DNA from: Clavibacter californiensis
Lineage (GTDB): Bacteria > Actinomycetota > Actinomycetes > Actinomycetales > Microbacteriaceae
Assembly (NCBI RefSeq): GCF_021952865.1
Contig: NZ_CP040792.1
Location: 2,542,001 to 2,606,000, forward strand
Direction of reading: 5' to 3'
Length of the DNA stretch: 64,000 nucleotides
This document shows, in pieces, positions 249 through 29,655 of this stretch (position 1 is its first letter; each line of letters opens with the position of its first letter). The translations under genes and the position numbers were made by a program. Under the pieces are notes generated by a model that worked only from the letters and a program-made list of their open reading frames with translations, was not told the origin of the DNA and did not search any database.

Positions 249-632
249 TCACATCGTGTTCCAGTGGAAGTCGCCGTTGCGGTCGGCGCCCTTGCCACCG
301 CACTTGTAGCTCCGGCCGTTGGCAGCCTGTGCCACCTGCCCGACCTGCGACGGAGAGCAGTATGTCCCGGGGCCGATCAGCCCGGTCTGCTGCGCCGGCT
401 CGGGAGCCGGGGCGGCCGGAGCCGGGGCGGGAGCAGGAGCGACGGGCGCCGGAGCGGGAGCAGCCGGCTGCTGGACGGGCGCGGGCGCGACCGTCGGCGC
501 GACCGTGGGCTCGGGCGTCGGGGTCGGGGCGGGCGCCAGCAGCGTGAGCGTCACGGTGGATCCGGCATCGGTGCGCGATCCCGCGACCGGGCTCTGCGAC
601 TTCACCGTCATGCCGTCGGTGGCGCTCGGCAC
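249..632 (-). CDS. Detached C-terminal half of the DUF2510/PASTA protein (after an in-frame TGA)
   Basis: This frame continues the upstream gene exactly, separated only by one TGA codon (633-635) followed by GTG. It begins inside a PASTA domain: the end of that domain (KSQSPVAG ... GSTVTLTL) is here, while its start lies in the upstream piece. A long Pro/Ala linker of AP-type repeats follows, then a small Cys-containing terminal domain (TYCSPSQVG ... YKCGGKG) of the kind that ends secreted or surface-exposed actinobacterial proteins. No good ribosome-binding site precedes the GTG, so it is either a dead gene half, translated by re-initiation, or joined by readthrough. A point mutation or sequence error from a sense codon is the simplest origin. 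Confidence 0.55.
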   Translation of the reverse strand: MPSATDGMTVKSQSPVAGSRTDAGSTVTLTLLAPAPTPTPEPTVAPTVAPAPVQQPAAPAPAPVAPAPAPAPAAPAPEPAQQTGLIGPGTYCSPSQVGQVAQAANGRSYKCGGKGADRNGDFHWNTM

Positions 633-1562
633 TCAACCCGACTCGAGCACGAACTGGACGACGTAGCCGGCCTCGCGCAGGAGCGCGCGGGCGTCCGTCG
701 CGGTCTTCGCGTTGACGTCCTCGACGATGTGGACCACGGGTGTCGGCGACGCGGTGGGCGTCGGGGTGGGCGACGGCGTCGGGCTCGCGCTGGCGGAGAT
801 CGCCTCGGCCTGGCGCGGAGCGGGAGCGGACGCCGCCACCGGTACCGTGGCCCCGATGACGATGAGCACGGCCGCGCCCAGGGCGGCGACGCCGTTGCGC
901 GAACGGGTCGTCAGGACGGGGATCCAGCTGCGATGGCCCGTGGCGTACGGGTAGAGAGCAGTGGCGATCCCGACGAGGCCGAGCGAGACGAACATGCCGC
1001 CGAAGCCGCCGAGGGCAGTGATGATCAGCACGGCCAGCGCCACGACGGACGCGACGACCCACGTGGTCGCCGGGTGGCGGCTCGGCCGGGTGTCGGTGAT
1101 CACGGAGGCAGGAGCCGCAGGAGCGACCGGCGCCGTGACGGCAGCCTGTCGCGGGGGTACCGGCATCGCGACGGTCGCCGCAGCCGCGCGGGCGCTCTTC
1201 TCCCGAGCTGCCGCCTCACGCTCCGTCGCCTTCGCCTGCATGGCCGCCTCGCGCTGCGCGACCTTCGCGGCGCGCTGCTGCTCGGCCTCCGCGGCACGCA
1301 CGGCCTTCGCCTGCGCGGCCTCGGCGGCCCGCATCGCCTTGTGGTGCGCGGCCTCGGCGGCCCGCGCGTTCCGCGCGGCCTCGACCTGCTGCGACGCGGC
1401 GACGGCCGCCGTCGCGGCTGCGCTCGAGGCCGGCGCCTGCGTCGCGGTGGGCTGCACCATCGGCGCGACGTGGTGCGTCCACACAGATCCGTCCCAGTAG
1501 CGGAGCTGCCCGGATCCGTCGGGGAACCAGCCGGCAGAAGCGGCAGAGGGGACGTCGGGCAT
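633..1562 (-). CDS. DUF2510 membrane protein with Ala-rich coiled coil, truncated in its PASTA domain
   Basis: The first ~35 residues form a DUF2510 domain (GWFPDGSG ... RYWDGSVWTHH), found at the N terminus of many actinobacterial membrane proteins. Residues ~50-130 are an Ala/Glu/Lys/Arg-rich segment (repeated AARAAEAA blocks), probably a coiled coil. Two or three hydrophobic segments follow (VVASVVALAVLII; LGAAVLIVIGATV), then a Ser/Thr/Pro linker and the first half of a PASTA domain that stops at TGA. The ATG at 1562 has a GAGGAG Shine-Dalgarno. PASTA domains bind peptidoglycan fragments; a cell-envelope role is inferred. The stop removes the rest of PASTA and the exported tail. Confidence 0.7.
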   Translation of the reverse strand: MPDVPSAASAGWFPDGSGQLRYWDGSVWTHHVAPMVQPTATQAPASSAAATAAVAASQQVEAARNARAAEAAHHKAMRAAEAAQAKAVRAAEAEQQRAAKVAQREAAMQAKATEREAAAREKSARAAAATVAMPVPPRQAAVTAPVAPAAPASVITDTRPSRHPATTWVVASVVALAVLIITALGGFGGMFVSLGLVGIATALYPYATGHRSWIPVLTTRSRNGVAALGAAVLIVIGATVPVAASAPAPRQAEAISASASPTPSPTPTPTASPTPVVHIVEDVNAKTATDARALLREAGYVVQFVLESG

Positions 1563-1770
1563 GGAGCTCCTCGGGTGCGTGCCGCGGCGAAGGGGTAAGC
1601 GGCAGGTGGTGCCGTCGAGTGACGACGCCTGAGGCTATGAGCGCGCTCTCGAGGACGTAAGCCCTCTCTTGGGGGGAAAGGGCGCGACAGTCGGCCGACA
1701 CCCGCCCTAACGCCGACTCGACGGCTTCGACCAGACGCCGCTTGCAACTCCTAGCCGTTGCGCACGCCAC

Positions 1771-4719
1771 TTACGCCAGATCGCTAAAAGTAATCGACTT
1801 AAAAATACTATCGTCATTGGACAACCAGCGGCCAATAAAATCTTTTACATTGGCCGAAAGGTCCATGTCCGCAATCGTGTTCTCAACCGGGGCCTCAAGC
1901 CTTTGAAAGGTTTCTAGGTAGGAACGCCGTAGGCCATCATCTGCGACCGCCCGCATCCTCCTGCGGCCCCCACCCGCCAATATTGTCTCCACTGGAGCGA
2001 CCGAGGCCAAAAACACTACATTCTTCGTCATTTGGGACAAAGGGCTTTCGACGCTCCACACTTGAGGCGCATCGTAGACCTGAAAGAACTGATAAGTCTC
2101 AGCCGTGCAGTGGAACCACTCGAGCGGTTCGCCCGATTCCCAGTCAGCCATAAACGCTGCAACTAGTTCCTGAATGACGCGTTCGTCATGCCGCTCCGAG
2201 ATATCGAAGTTATAAGTGACAGACCTAAGAAAAGACGTCGCGAGCGAAGGGGCGCCCTTGTAACCCTCAAACCATATATCACCAAATCCTAGCCCTGCTT
2301 TTTTCATAGCCGTAATAGCTTCTTCGACATCTATAGTGCCGCTCAGGAGCATAATCCCATGCACTAGTGGCGCGTCGGAACTCAGCGCAAGCAGCCCCTG
2401 CCTTTGCGATTTCGAAAGACGGGTAAACATGTCCATCCATACGCCTTGGCCAACAGGGTCAAATATGGTGTCCGTGAAGCCTTCCGCCACACCGTGAAGT
2501 ATAAAGTGCTTTGCCCTCAGAGAGATGCGAGTGTCCTGATTTACAAGATCCGCTAGAAGCTGCTCTTCTGCCGCCGATGCGACTGTAGCTACATGCTCAT
2601 CTGCGACGGCGTCGGCAAGAATCGTCCAAGCCCCCGTAAGCGAACTTAAATCTGCTTCGTCCGTCGTTGTCGTATTGGTATAGAAGGCGACTATATGCCG
2701 AGTAAGCGATCGAATAAATGCCGGAGAAACAATAGCGAATCTTGCACAGCGAGCTATGAAAGCTAATACGTGCTCACGGTTGGCAGGAGTGCGCCTCCGC
2801 GTGTCGTTGAGCATAACCGCGAGAGCACGTTCGGAACCTTGATCTGCGTAGTTATTAGTTATCTGTATGGCCAGCTGAGCTACTACGTCCCACTCCTCAC
2901 GAGCTACATGCGGCAATAGGTCTTGTGCCAGCTTTTCCGGAGTATCATTAATGCGCGTGAGATGGAAGGCCGCAAAATATTCCATAAAAGTGCGATGAGT
3001 GAATGTGTAAAGCACGTCGCCGGCCGACGTAGTACCAGCATCAGCAAAAACCCACGCTCGGCCCGTGCAGAAGTCTACGAATTCCTCAGCCGCTCGGCGT
3101 GCGGTCTCTTCGGTTTCCATGGCGCGGGGATAAAGATACTTTGTCATAATGCGAACAAGATCAACGCGCGCAACTCCGGAGTCAGCCGTGTCAGAGATTA
3201 AGACCCAGTGCGCCACGTACTTCATGGCGGCGTCAACATGCGCGCGCGCCTGAAGGGCTACTTCAATATCACGATGACCATCCCACTTCTCAAAGAGTAA
3301 TACCGCGCATTTTTCATATACGGCTGGTCGATTCCGAGGAATGAAATTTTCTCCGCGAAAAATAATGCACATTAAAGCAAGCATTAAGGGATTAGATCGA
3401 AGGTCTGTTACAGCTTCGCTTTGCTGCATGAAGCTATGGGCTCTGACAACCGCTTCTGTTGCCGTATAGTCCGACTGTGAGGCAAACCATTTACCGACGT
3501 ACTCTTTAACATCACCCTCGACAAAGCCGTCAATGTTGAACGCTGAGTAGACTGTCGGATCTAGGCGTGCCTGGGAGTAGCCAACTCTACGCGACGTGAC
3601 AAGAATCTTCGCAAGCGGGTACCGGATACCGAACGTTTCCACCGCTTGCGTCACAGCGCGGCGCTTACTCGTGTCTATTAGTTCATCAAGCCCATCGAAG
3701 ATCACGACGGCTTCTCCAGTCAAAAGCAGATCCTCAACCAGGCCGGGTAAAGGATCCAGTTGGTATATCGGAGCTAAAGTAGTTTCGACAAACTGCAGGA
3801 CGGATAGTCCGTCTGGCTGCTTCGCGAAATCACGGAGAATTACGTGAAACGGCACAAGTTCCGTGGGGCTACTCGCCCAGCTCATCGCCAGGTACTCCGA
3901 AAGAGTGGACTTGCCCCCGCCCGGATCTCCAAGTACGACAGTACGATCAATTGCCCGTTGAAGATCTTGTAGCCCCATGGGCGGACCTACCGAAAAGGGA
4001 AAGCTAAGGTCACTTTTTTGCAAGCGTGGGGCGACATATAATTCACCCATTGGAATTTTCCGATTCGTCTCAAAATCAGGAGGGGTGATATAGCCGTGAA
4101 CCTCTTTGCACAATCCTCTGTACGTTTGAATCCACTCGTTTCGAGCAGCATGCACATCGGCGTGCGCACCTCTTACAATAGCTTCCGTATTTTTTTCAAT
4201 CGCCTCTAAAATAGCCGTCATGCGCTTTAGTAAGTTTGCCTGCTGAAGACTGGACAGTAGCTCCGGACTCTGTTCACGAAGTTCGTCTACCAGACTCTGA
4301 CAAGAAGTGACCAATGCCCCCACGAGATGCCCGGCAAAAGCCACAGCGTCACTCCTGGTGGCCGATTCGTGTTCCAGACCTGATGACACGTAAATTTCGA
4401 TGGCTTGCCGCAAGTCAACTATCTTGTCACCCTGCGTTCCTCCATCCGCAAGCGAACACAGAATAAGCTCGTTGAGCACACCTCTAAAAGAAGGTGTAGA
4501 AATCACATTTGACAACGTCTTTGCGGTAACTTTACCCCGCATGAATCCTGCCAGCTTCACAGGGCCGAGATCAGCCAAAAGCGTGTCATGATCTAGCTTC
4601 TGAAGAGTCCCAGCGAGATCGTTGAGTCTGCGATCGCCCTTTTTGCGATGCCGTTCACCGATAATTGCTCCTGCAACTCCGAGAACATCTACAAAAACAC
4701 CTATGACCTCGACGACCAT
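1771..4719 (-). CDS. NACHT-domain STAND NTPase, probable anti-phage defence protein
   Basis: 982 residues. Residues ~1-200 are a mostly helical N-terminal region I do not recognise. The NACHT NTPase follows: Walker A GDPGGGKST (~264-272), Walker B VVIFDGLDEL (~338-347) with the typical double acidic end, and the ILVTSRR sensor strand (~372). A helical region comes next, with the NACHT-associated motif FTHRTFMEYFAAFHL. The C-terminal ~350 residues are an unassigned, probably helical sensor region. Bacterial NACHT proteins of this form (bNACHT/Avs relatives) sense phage products and trigger cell shutdown; that role is inferred. Start: AAGGAG lies 4 bases before ATG. The gene is far more AT-rich than its neighbours, stands alone and sits beside a tRNA, so it was probably acquired by transfer. 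The effector activity, if encoded, must be in the N-terminal region. Confidence 0.85.
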   Translation of the reverse strand: MVVEVIGVFVDVLGVAGAIIGERHRKKGDRRLNDLAGTLQKLDHDTLLADLGPVKLAGFMRGKVTAKTLSNVISTPSFRGVLNELILCSLADGGTQGDKIVDLRQAIEIYVSSGLEHESATRSDAVAFAGHLVGALVTSCQSLVDELREQSPELLSSLQQANLLKRMTAILEAIEKNTEAIVRGAHADVHAARNEWIQTYRGLCKEVHGYITPPDFETNRKIPMGELYVAPRLQKSDLSFPFSVGPPMGLQDLQRAIDRTVVLGDPGGGKSTLSEYLAMSWASSPTELVPFHVILRDFAKQPDGLSVLQFVETTLAPIYQLDPLPGLVEDLLLTGEAVVIFDGLDELIDTSKRRAVTQAVETFGIRYPLAKILVTSRRVGYSQARLDPTVYSAFNIDGFVEGDVKEYVGKWFASQSDYTATEAVVRAHSFMQQSEAVTDLRSNPLMLALMCIIFRGENFIPRNRPAVYEKCAVLLFEKWDGHRDIEVALQARAHVDAAMKYVAHWVLISDTADSGVARVDLVRIMTKYLYPRAMETEETARRAAEEFVDFCTGRAWVFADAGTTSAGDVLYTFTHRTFMEYFAAFHLTRINDTPEKLAQDLLPHVAREEWDVVAQLAIQITNNYADQGSERALAVMLNDTRRRTPANREHVLAFIARCARFAIVSPAFIRSLTRHIVAFYTNTTTTDEADLSSLTGAWTILADAVADEHVATVASAAEEQLLADLVNQDTRISLRAKHFILHGVAEGFTDTIFDPVGQGVWMDMFTRLSKSQRQGLLALSSDAPLVHGIMLLSGTIDVEEAITAMKKAGLGFGDIWFEGYKGAPSLATSFLRSVTYNFDISERHDERVIQELVAAFMADWESGEPLEWFHCTAETYQFFQVYDAPQVWSVESPLSQMTKNVVFLASVAPVETILAGGGRRRMRAVADDGLRRSYLETFQRLEAPVENTIADMDLSANVKDFIGRWLSNDDSIFKSITFSDLA

Positions 4720-4728
4720 GACACTCCT

Positions 4729-4749
4729 TAGGTTCTAGTCGAGAACCTA
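4729..4749 (-). promoter_or_regulatory. Perfect palindrome overlapping the NACHT gene promoter and ribosome-binding site
   Basis: Arms TAGGTTCT and AGAACCTA, 8 bp each with a 5-bp spacer. On the coding strand the distal arm overlaps a -10-like TATAGG (4746-4751). The proximal arm runs directly into the AAGGAG ribosome-binding site of the NACHT gene. A repressor bound here would block transcription start; as RNA, the hairpin would end at the Shine-Dalgarno. No regulator gene lies next to it, so any repressor would be encoded elsewhere or be the NACHT protein itself. Confidence 0.5.
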
Positions 4750-4812
4750 TATGTCGCCTCTCCGTTACCGCTCCCCCCTTTTTTGGGGCCAATAACAACA
4801 TGCGAGGAGAAT

Positions 4813-4847
4813 GGAAAAGCCACCTTCTTTAAGAAGGTGGCTTTTCC
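4813..4847 (-). terminator. Rho-independent terminator after tRNA-Pro
   Basis: Two 17-base arms with perfect complementarity (GGAAAAGCCACCTTCTT and its complement) and almost no loop, flanked by A and T runs. It starts 10 bases beyond the tRNA 3' end and separates the tRNA from the NACHT gene. The symmetric form could stop transcription from either side. Confidence 0.8.
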
Positions 4848-4856
4848 CTTACCGTG

Positions 4857-4930
<74 letters not shown>

Positions 4931-24350: not shown

Positions 24351-24469
24351 GTCCGGCGGTGTCCTACTCTCCCACAGGGTCCCCCCTGCAGTACCATCGG
24401 CGCTGAGAGTCTTAGCTTCCGGGTTCGGAATGTGACCGGGCGTTTCCCTCTCGCTATGGCCGCCGAAAC
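24351..24469 (-). rRNA. rrf: 5S ribosomal RNA
   Basis: About 119 bases. On the minus strand it starts GTTTCGGCGGCCATAGCG and ends in CACCGCCGGAC, so the terminal helix closes. The internal CCGAACCCGGAAG and GGGAGAGTAGG loops are typical of bacterial 5S. Third gene of the operon; ends are approximate. Confidence 0.95.
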
Positions 24470-24548
24470 ACCCCATACACACCCCCAACGAGGGCATGAA
24501 ATCTGTGATGAATCGACCAGTCAAGCTGGTTGTTCAATTAGCACCCGA

Positions 24549-24582
24549 CCGTATATCGGGAACCACATAGTGGACGCAAGCA
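24549..24582 (-). other. 23S processing stem, 3' strand
   Basis: This 34-base segment just after the 23S gene pairs with 27810-27843 before it. Of 34 positions, 29 are Watson-Crick pairs and the other five are G-U pairs. It would form the double-stranded substrate for RNase III release of pre-23S rRNA. Confidence 0.75.
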
Positions 24583-24593
24583 AAGTGTTTTCA

Positions 24594-29655
<5,062 letters not shown>

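What the first reader, a model, noticed from the sequence alone, without database searches (positions are those of the whole stretch)
1730..4810. Solitary AT-rich NACHT NTPase gene inserted beside tRNA-Pro
Seen: a 2.95-kb gene with intact Walker A (GDPGGGKST), Walker B (FDGLDEL) and the NACHT-associated RTFMEYFAAFHL segment. Its base composition is far more AT-rich than every neighbour, with sharp edges near 1730 and 4810, and no integrase, repeats or partner gene. Known: bacterial NACHT proteins are anti-phage sensors. Inference: a one-gene defence cargo at a tRNA hotspot. I recognise no known effector in the N-terminal ~200 residues or sensor in the C-terminal ~350, so the clade may be undescribed.
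Basis: partly seen in the sequence, partly recalled or inferred. Interest (0 to 1): 0.72.

Follow-up and report, generated by a model that had tools for sequence, protein, structure and literature searches.

The report
Solitary NACHT defence gene at tRNA-Pro
A single AT-rich gene for an immune-receptor-like NACHT protein sits in a variable chromosomal slot beside a proline tRNA gene, where related species carry other, often defence-type, genes; it is probably a one-gene anti-phage sensor, and its helical front part matched no domain in the libraries searched.

Summary
An intact 982-codon gene (1771-4719, minus strand; GC3 0.509 against 0.89-0.97 in eight other window genes) carries a NACHT ATPase module and lies between a DUF2510 gene and tRNA-Pro(ggg). 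Homology to relatives ends at 1675-1686 and exactly at 4856. The gene is in 1 of 18 genus genomes (one per species). In the 15 others with both flanks the interval is 1.0-9.7 kb; eight of these share a common background, while others hold AT-rich cargo such as a DNA methylase, RES, PIN, KptA or AAA proteins. One relative shows the likely mechanism: an integrase element flanked by a 43-bp copy of the tRNA 3' end. Full-length relatives found are few, apparently actinobacterial and without a recurrent partner. They share a helical N-terminal domain (residues 1-185) with no credible Pfam, NCBIfam, PADLOC or PDB sequence match, a conserved NACHT core and a divergent C-terminus. Low GC is common in the family, so it does not by itself show recent import. 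Best reading: a one-protein NLR-like abortive-infection sensor. Effector chemistry and trigger are unknown; two structure models were unusable.

The parts
1771..4719 (-). NACHT NTPase gene, 982 aa
   Evidence: ORF; Pfam NACHT 2.5e-11
4165..4719 (-). N-terminal helical domain, residues 1-185 (putative effector or adaptor)
   Evidence: leave-one-out profile: 20.8 bits against at most 3.2 in 200 shuffles; helical in two low-confidence models
2920..4047 (-). NACHT module with its FTHRTFMEYFAA end, residues 225-600
3904..3930 (-). Walker A GDPGGGKST (residues 264-272)
3682..3699 (-). Walker B FDGLDE (residues 341-346)
2968..3003 (-). FTHRTFMEYFAA motif (residues 573-584)
1774..2919 (-). Divergent C-terminal region, residues 601-982 (putative sensor)
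   Evidence: 16.3% mean pairwise identity against 36.1% in the NACHT core; in the query mainly residues 642-727 matched the other relatives' profile
4729..4749 (.). Perfect 8-bp dyad TAGGTTCT-N5-AGAACCTA upstream of the likely ribosome-binding site; possible operator
   Evidence: sequence; function not tested
4810..4850 (.). 20-nt inverted repeat (hairpin) next to the tRNA, where 15 of 17 relatives have another hairpin
   Evidence: not listed as terminator-like by the scan
4856..4930 (-). tRNA-Pro(ggg), right edge of the slot
1687..4855 (.). Genus-specific insert (variable slot)
633..1562 (-). DUF2510 gene, left edge of the slot (first part of an interrupted frame)

Best explanation
A one-gene, NLR-like (STAND/NACHT) anti-phage sensor carried as exchangeable cargo in a tRNA-Pro hotspot. 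Shown here: a complete gene with intact NACHT ATPase motifs; a shared N-terminal domain, predicted helical; a fast-diverging C-terminus; presence in one genus member only, in a slot where several other members hold defence-type genes. Inferred: the C-terminal region senses a phage product or the damage it causes; ATP-dependent NACHT oligomerisation then brings N-terminal helical domains together; these kill or stall the cell, either by acting on the membrane or by recruiting a host protein, because no catalytic residue is seen to be conserved there.
For: NACHT motifs intact and invariant across the 11 aligned proteins. NCBIfam's best models are EruA (1.7e-8 for this protein; 8 of 8 members) and DS8 (5 of 8 members, not this protein), both labelled anti-phage, matched in the NACHT part. 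Gene in 1 of 18 genus genomes, with tRNA and right flank in 18 of 18 and left flank in 16 of 18. Of 20 slot proteins scanned from 11 other genomes, 12 had a Pfam hit, among them SIR2, C5-methylase, HATPase, RES, PIN, KptA, AAA_15/21, ORC-CDC6-like and calcineurin-like; 6 of 10 had a PADLOC hit. N-terminal domain above all 200 shuffles in 10 of 11 by leave-one-out, with no residue invariant between M1 and V229. Mean pairwise identity N 18.6%, NACHT 36.1%, C 16.3%. A close NACHT relative (43%) has a DUF4062 reading frame upstream; PMC13174449 (passages seen) reports DUF4062 as an anti-phage NADase.
Against: No direct evidence of defence for this family: PADLOC gave nothing for this protein and only weak matches for relatives (best 3.3e-4). 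The NACHT fold also occurs outside immunity. No expression or phage data. 8 of 20 slot proteins had no Pfam hit. The sensor role rests on divergence alone. The last step has no structural support: both models have mean pLDDT of about 39. G729 fails the N-terminal test.
Confidence: 0.62

Rival explanations
1. Same defence role, but the N-terminal domain is an adaptor: it does not harm the cell itself and instead recruits an effector encoded elsewhere by homotypic helical contacts, as effector-associated and death-like domains do.
For: Helical in low-confidence models, no conserved catalytic residue; PMC8195603 (passages seen) describes helical adaptor domains fused to bacterial STAND NTPases. 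The gene is alone, so a partner, if any, lies elsewhere.
Against: The N-domain profile found only 3 places in 394 class genomes, all members of the profile itself, so no separate protein with the same domain was seen; only 8 candidates per genome were scored.
Confidence: 0.25
2. A STAND-type regulator of host physiology, not a defence gene, that happens to be mobile.
For: STAND proteins are common in actinobacteria (recalled); in G593 the relative abuts an AAA_16/TPR gene.
Against: One of 18 genus genomes; patchy in the samples searched; slot shared with defence-type genes; no neighbour recurs by eye across the relatives' loci.
Confidence: 0.1
3. A dead passenger left by an integrative element.
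For: The distal tRNA-end copy and the genus hairpin seen in G001 were not found in this window; the adjacent DUF2510 frame is interrupted.
Against: 982 codons open with the NACHT motifs and a ribosome-binding-like site before the start.
Confidence: 0.08

Closest known systems
bNACHT proteins (bNACHT25/32 of clade 6; bNACHT02/12 of clade 14)
   Same: Single-gene, central NACHT module, N- and C-terminal variable parts; clade 14 also lacks a discernible effector (PMC12169576, passages seen)
   Different: Clade 6 has a PD-(D/E)XK nuclease and NCH1, clade 14 a short SNaCT C-terminus (same source); no such hit in the Pfam tables shown for this protein and relatives. Clade placement not testable here.
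NCBIfam anti-phage models EruA and DS8 (the latter taken to be DS-8, metallophosphatase-NACHT, of PMC13092281; link by name only)
   Same: NACHT region matches: EruA in 8 of 8 members, DS8 in 5 of 8
   Different: For this protein only residues 339-596 match the 1318-position EruA model, 33.1 bits against a cut-off of 1000, and DS8 does not match; no metallophosphatase hit. No paper on the anti-phage EruA was found (one search returned another protein of that name).
DUF4062 (TIR-like NADase) next to or fused with NACHT
   Same: Nearest NACHT core by identity (43%, G715) lies in the same clade of 12
   Different: This protein has the helical N-terminus instead; of six proteins scanned, DUF4062 was in those of G715 and G610
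Metazoan NLRs (NLRP6, NLRP3)
   Same: Distant profile similarity in the NACHT part and FTHxTFxEYFAA motif (best 1.6e-6)
   Different: No leucine-rich repeat, PYD or CARD hit in the Pfam tables shown

Membership tests
NACHT-clade STAND NTPase | NACHT domain above Pfam gathering score with Walker A and B | tested here: met
   44.1 bits against 26.7; motif core residues invariant in 11
bNACHT anti-phage proteins | Protection against phage in an assay | not testable with these tools
   no experiment possible
bNACHT anti-phage proteins | Tripartite layout: N-terminal effector, NACHT, C-terminal sensor | tested here: inconclusive
   Three regions with distinct conservation; roles of both ends not shown
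bNACHT clade 14 | SNaCT C-terminal domain | tested here: inconclusive
   No such Pfam hit in the tables shown (25 of 31 families shown in 29), but it was not checked that the library holds a SNaCT model
bNACHT clade 6 | N-terminal PD-(D/E)XK nuclease and NCH1 | tested here: inconclusive
   No nuclease hit among the 6 families listed for 11 N-termini and no invariant residue between M1 and V229; such nucleases diverge widely and an NCH1 model was not verified to be in the library
EruA | Score above the NCBIfam cut-off | tested here: not met
   33.1 bits against 1000
tRNA-associated defence hotspot | Conserved flanks, variable content, defence-type genes | tested here: met
   defence label inferred from domain names
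Site-specific integrative element | Integrase and direct att repeats | tested here: not met
   None in this copy; both present in sister genome G001

The most novel reading that the evidence does not exclude
The N-terminal 185 residues are an undescribed helical effector domain of a rare actinobacterial NACHT clade that acts on the membrane directly, a bacterial counterpart of coiled-coil or HeLo-type NLR domains (likeness recalled, not tested). Residues 2-20 are the most hydrophobic 19-residue stretch of the protein, and relatives start with an Ala/Gly-rich stretch followed by basic residues.
Probability: 0.17. Interest if true: 0.66.

Novelty: new member of a known kind. Interest (0 to 1): 0.42.

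Why it matters
It adds a mapped, probable defence hotspot for this genus, with the likely integration mechanism visible in a sister genome, and points to a conserved N-terminal domain without a credible library or PDB match whose activity can be tested. It also cautions that low GC is common in this gene class in high-GC hosts and should not be read alone as recent import.

Tried and rejected
Structure: a full-length model from a two-row alignment (mean pLDDT 39.0, pTM 0.28) and an N-terminal model (39.7, pTM 0.36) are too poor for fold searches, so none was run; only the mostly helical tendency of both ends is used, with caution. PDB profile searches with the N-terminal (A5) and C-terminal (A6) alignments gave nothing credible (best E 0.16, 14-3-3, none up to E 5). 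Pfam hits at the ends were all weak and below cut-off: DUF6166 0.072 at 816-861 and FliT 0.13 at 133-173 in the full protein; SpecificRecomb 0.031, FliT 0.035, FliJ 0.073 for the N-terminus, and Methyltransf_2 0.002 in one relative. PHROGs was not searched.

Integration remnant: the tRNA 3' end and the genus hairpin were sought in the 64-kb window; only the tRNA itself was found. The whole chromosome was not searched for the hairpin.

AT-richness as proof of recent transfer: rejected as sole evidence, because 8 of 13 relatives measured have GC 0.57 or less in loci of 0.65-0.73.

'A different cargo in every species': rejected in its strong form. All-against-all blastn shows 8 of the 15 bounded intervals (G001, G003, G006, G009, G012, G015, G016, G017) sharing stretches of 0.4-2.6 kb; this looks like older common content.

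Membrane helix as a family trait: only partly borne out. The 19-residue hydropathy maximum is 2.36 in this protein but 0.64-1.38 in the ten relatives, six of which I read from an inner start point.

Promoter-like sites: 3 against a shuffle mean of 2.2; terminator-like 4 against 3.3; the hairpin at 4810-4850 was not among them. Exact 14-base words shared with other slots: five, scattered.

Dropped rows: the tree left out L068 (not caught by the script's motif filter), L079 (404-residue frame), the viral loci and the two Rhodococcus proteins. G007 and G014 lack the left flank, so their intervals are unbounded 9-kb stretches. A 697-aa frame in G014 was left out after a wrong-strand request.

Full report
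Observation. The gene is there as described: 1771-4719 on the minus strand, 982 aa, with Pfam NACHT at 2.5e-11. GC is 0.513 and GC3 0.509, against GC3 0.89-0.97 in eight other genes of the window that were measured. The only other block of similar GC in the 64 kb is an rRNA operon. Within the insert no other ORF of 80 aa or more survives overlap filtering, and the direct repeats are only 12-14 nt long.

The slot. The genus search returned 18 genomes, one per species. The gene is in 1 of 18. The tRNA-Pro and its right flank are in 18 of 18, and in the 17 others the best match begins at window 4856, the tRNA 3' end. The DUF2510 left flank is in 16 of 18; G007 and G014 lack it. In the 15 others homology on the left ends between window 1675 and 1686. 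Their interval ranges from 996 to 9733 bp. No interval, G007 and G014 included as 9-kb stretches, shares DNA with this insert by blastn at 1e-4.

Content of the slot. It is not different in every species: 8 of the 15 bounded intervals share stretches of 0.4-2.6 kb with one another, which looks like older common content, including a Vsr-type nuclease gene (Pfam in G009). I scanned 20 slot proteins from 11 of the 17 other genomes with Pfam (12 with a hit, 8 without) and 10 with PADLOC (6 with a hit); not all slot ORFs were scanned. Found: an AAA_15/AAA_21 ATPase (G002; PADLOC NsnB 8e-69), a RES-domain protein (G004), a C5 cytosine methylase with an HATPase protein (G005), a KptA/Tpt1-domain protein (G008), ORC-CDC6-like plus calcineurin-like proteins (G010), an HTH-M78 protein (G011; PADLOC RmrA 1e-118), a PIN_4 protein (G013), a SIR2_2 protein beside the tRNA in G014 (which lacks the left flank), and a phage integrase (G001). 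Many of these have GC3 near 0.5 like the NACHT gene (G002, G004, G005, G008, G010, G014). This is a variable hotspot, probably for defence; the defence label is inference from domain names.

How cargo gets in. In G001 a tyrosine-integrase gene lies next to the tRNA, and an exact 43-bp copy of the tRNA 3' end lies 8.8 kb away. By eye on the printed last 90 bases, 15 of 17 other genomes have one type of hairpin ending next to the tRNA (G002 with a one-base change near its end, G010 with a changed stem). I take it for the tRNA terminator, untested. In G001 that sequence lies instead at the far copy of the tRNA end, and a different sequence follows the tRNA. In the window genome a different hairpin (4810-4850) also follows the tRNA, as expected after integration at the tRNA 3' end. 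But neither a second tRNA fragment nor the genus hairpin is found in the window. So the right end looks like a site-specific insertion whose distal end was later lost, or the content was exchanged by flanking recombination; this step is inference. In G004, G005 and G008 the genus hairpin is kept and the cargo starts near the same left edge, which fits recombination in the flanks.

Relatives. At the cut-offs used, matches were found in 3 of 398 family genomes (1e-20), 13 of 394 class genomes (1e-30), 5 of 249 genomes of G572's family (1e-50), 2 of 35 of G715's family (1e-50) and 1 of 396 phylum genomes (1e-50, the window genome only). Counts include the window genome or the centre genome, the samples overlap, and only a few candidates per genome were scored in most of them. 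Outside the phylum I searched only the genome-contig collection (1 relative, Streptomyces inhibens), plasmids (56 records, none covering 80%), phages (1 record) and viral contigs (none with the protein alone; 3 loci with an alignment; 29 with a 177-residue sub-alignment). Of those 32 viral loci 31 gave an ORF match, all within profile positions 188-596 of 959, that is the NACHT part. On a 20-row tree of the NACHT core, a clade of 12 holds the query (100/99; midpoint root); its nearest group, two Streptomyces-type records and G857, has 87/88, below the strong mark.

Anatomy. Across 11 full-length proteins the mean pairwise identity is 18.6% for residues 1-215, 36.1% for 225-600 and 16.3% for 601-982. 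No residue from 2 to 228 is invariant. In leave-one-out profiles, residues 1-185 score above all 200 shuffles in 10 of 11 (query 20.8 bits against 3.2; G729 fails, 1.3 against 4.7), and residues 640-982 in 8 of 11 (query 12.0 against 5.8; Kp marginal at 9.5 against 8.2; G350, G332 and G729 fail), where the query's main matched stretch is about 642-727. A wider cut that took in parts of the NACHT module gave 11 of 11 for both ends and is not relied on. So the N-terminus is a shared domain, while most of the C-terminus is not recognisably conserved. Pfam, NCBIfam, PADLOC and PDB sequence searches gave no credible hit at either end. The N-domain profile, run on 394 class genomes, found 3 places, all members of the profile itself. 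G715, 43% identical in the NACHT core, has a DUF4062 frame (3e-13) upstream in an overlapping, different reading frame of a short draft contig, so the N-terminal slot may be swapped.

Composition. 8 of 13 relatives have GC 0.57 or less in surroundings of 0.65-0.73; the other five are 0.59-0.65. Low GC is thus common in the family. A Rhodococcus fascians plasmid relative lies near an Lsr2 gene; Lsr2-type silencing of such genes is a speculation.

Neighbours of relatives. Looking by eye, no partner gene recurs in nine neighbourhoods of 5.5-17 kb or three plasmid regions. A tRNA gene was found in 1 of 11 of these loci (tRNA-Arg, G572), so tRNA association is particular to this genus as far as seen. 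G593 abuts an AAA_16/TPR gene; the Rhodococcus pyridinivorans copy is two genes from a site-specific integrase.

Literature. PMC12169576 (passages): bNACHT layout, clades 6 and 14, DnaJ and bNACHT25. PMC13092281 (passages): DS-8, a metallophosphatase-NACHT defence protein. PMC13174449 (passages): DUF4062 as an anti-phage NADase. PMC8195603 (passages): helical adaptors on STAND NTPases. PMC13236601 (abstract and outline). The 2023 bNACHT paper was not held. The listings showed no title or abstract start about this clade or a tRNA-Pro hotspot in this genus; most of the listed papers were not opened.

Mechanism. The likeliest course is sensing by the C-terminus, ATP-driven NACHT assembly, and cell death or arrest through clustered N-terminal helical domains. 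Only the intact NACHT motifs and the domain pattern are shown. Membrane action and recruitment of a partner are both open. Residues 2-20 are the query's most hydrophobic stretch (hydropathy 2.36), but relatives reach only 0.64-1.38; the first 40 residues carry net positive charge in 10 of 11.

Verdict. A real, ordinary-in-kind but uncharacterised one-gene NACHT defence candidate in a variable tRNA-Pro slot. Interest 0.42.

Noticed in passing
window 249-1562 (minus strand): The DUF2510 gene at the left edge is split by an in-frame stop; 14 of 17 other genus genomes show one frame of 442-532 codons from stop to stop, one is cut by a contig end and two gave no match.
   Followed up: partly
L039:2396-11281 (genome G001): An 8.8-kb element with a tyrosine integrase beside tRNA-Pro and an exact 43-bp copy of the tRNA 3' end at its far end, with the genus hairpin displaced there.
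   Followed up: yes
window 4729-4749: A perfect 8-bp dyad upstream of the likely ribosome-binding site of the NACHT gene, a possible operator; not compared in relatives.
   Followed up: no
window 24351-29654: Complete rRNA operon (5S, 23S, 16S) on the minus strand, the only other AT-rich block of the window.
   Followed up: yes
L119:3287-7988: In Rhodococcus fascians a NACHT relative lies next to an N-6 DNA methylase gene and near an Lsr2 gene on a plasmid.
   Followed up: no
L059:2729-3775: A DUF4062 frame overlaps, in another frame, the NACHT frame most similar to the query (43%); fusion, frameshift or sequencing error not resolved.
   Followed up: partly
L046:2362-5439 (genome G008): A 1025-aa slot protein with a KptA/Tpt1 RNA 2'-phosphotransferase domain near its C-terminus and no PADLOC match, an unusual cargo.
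   Followed up: no
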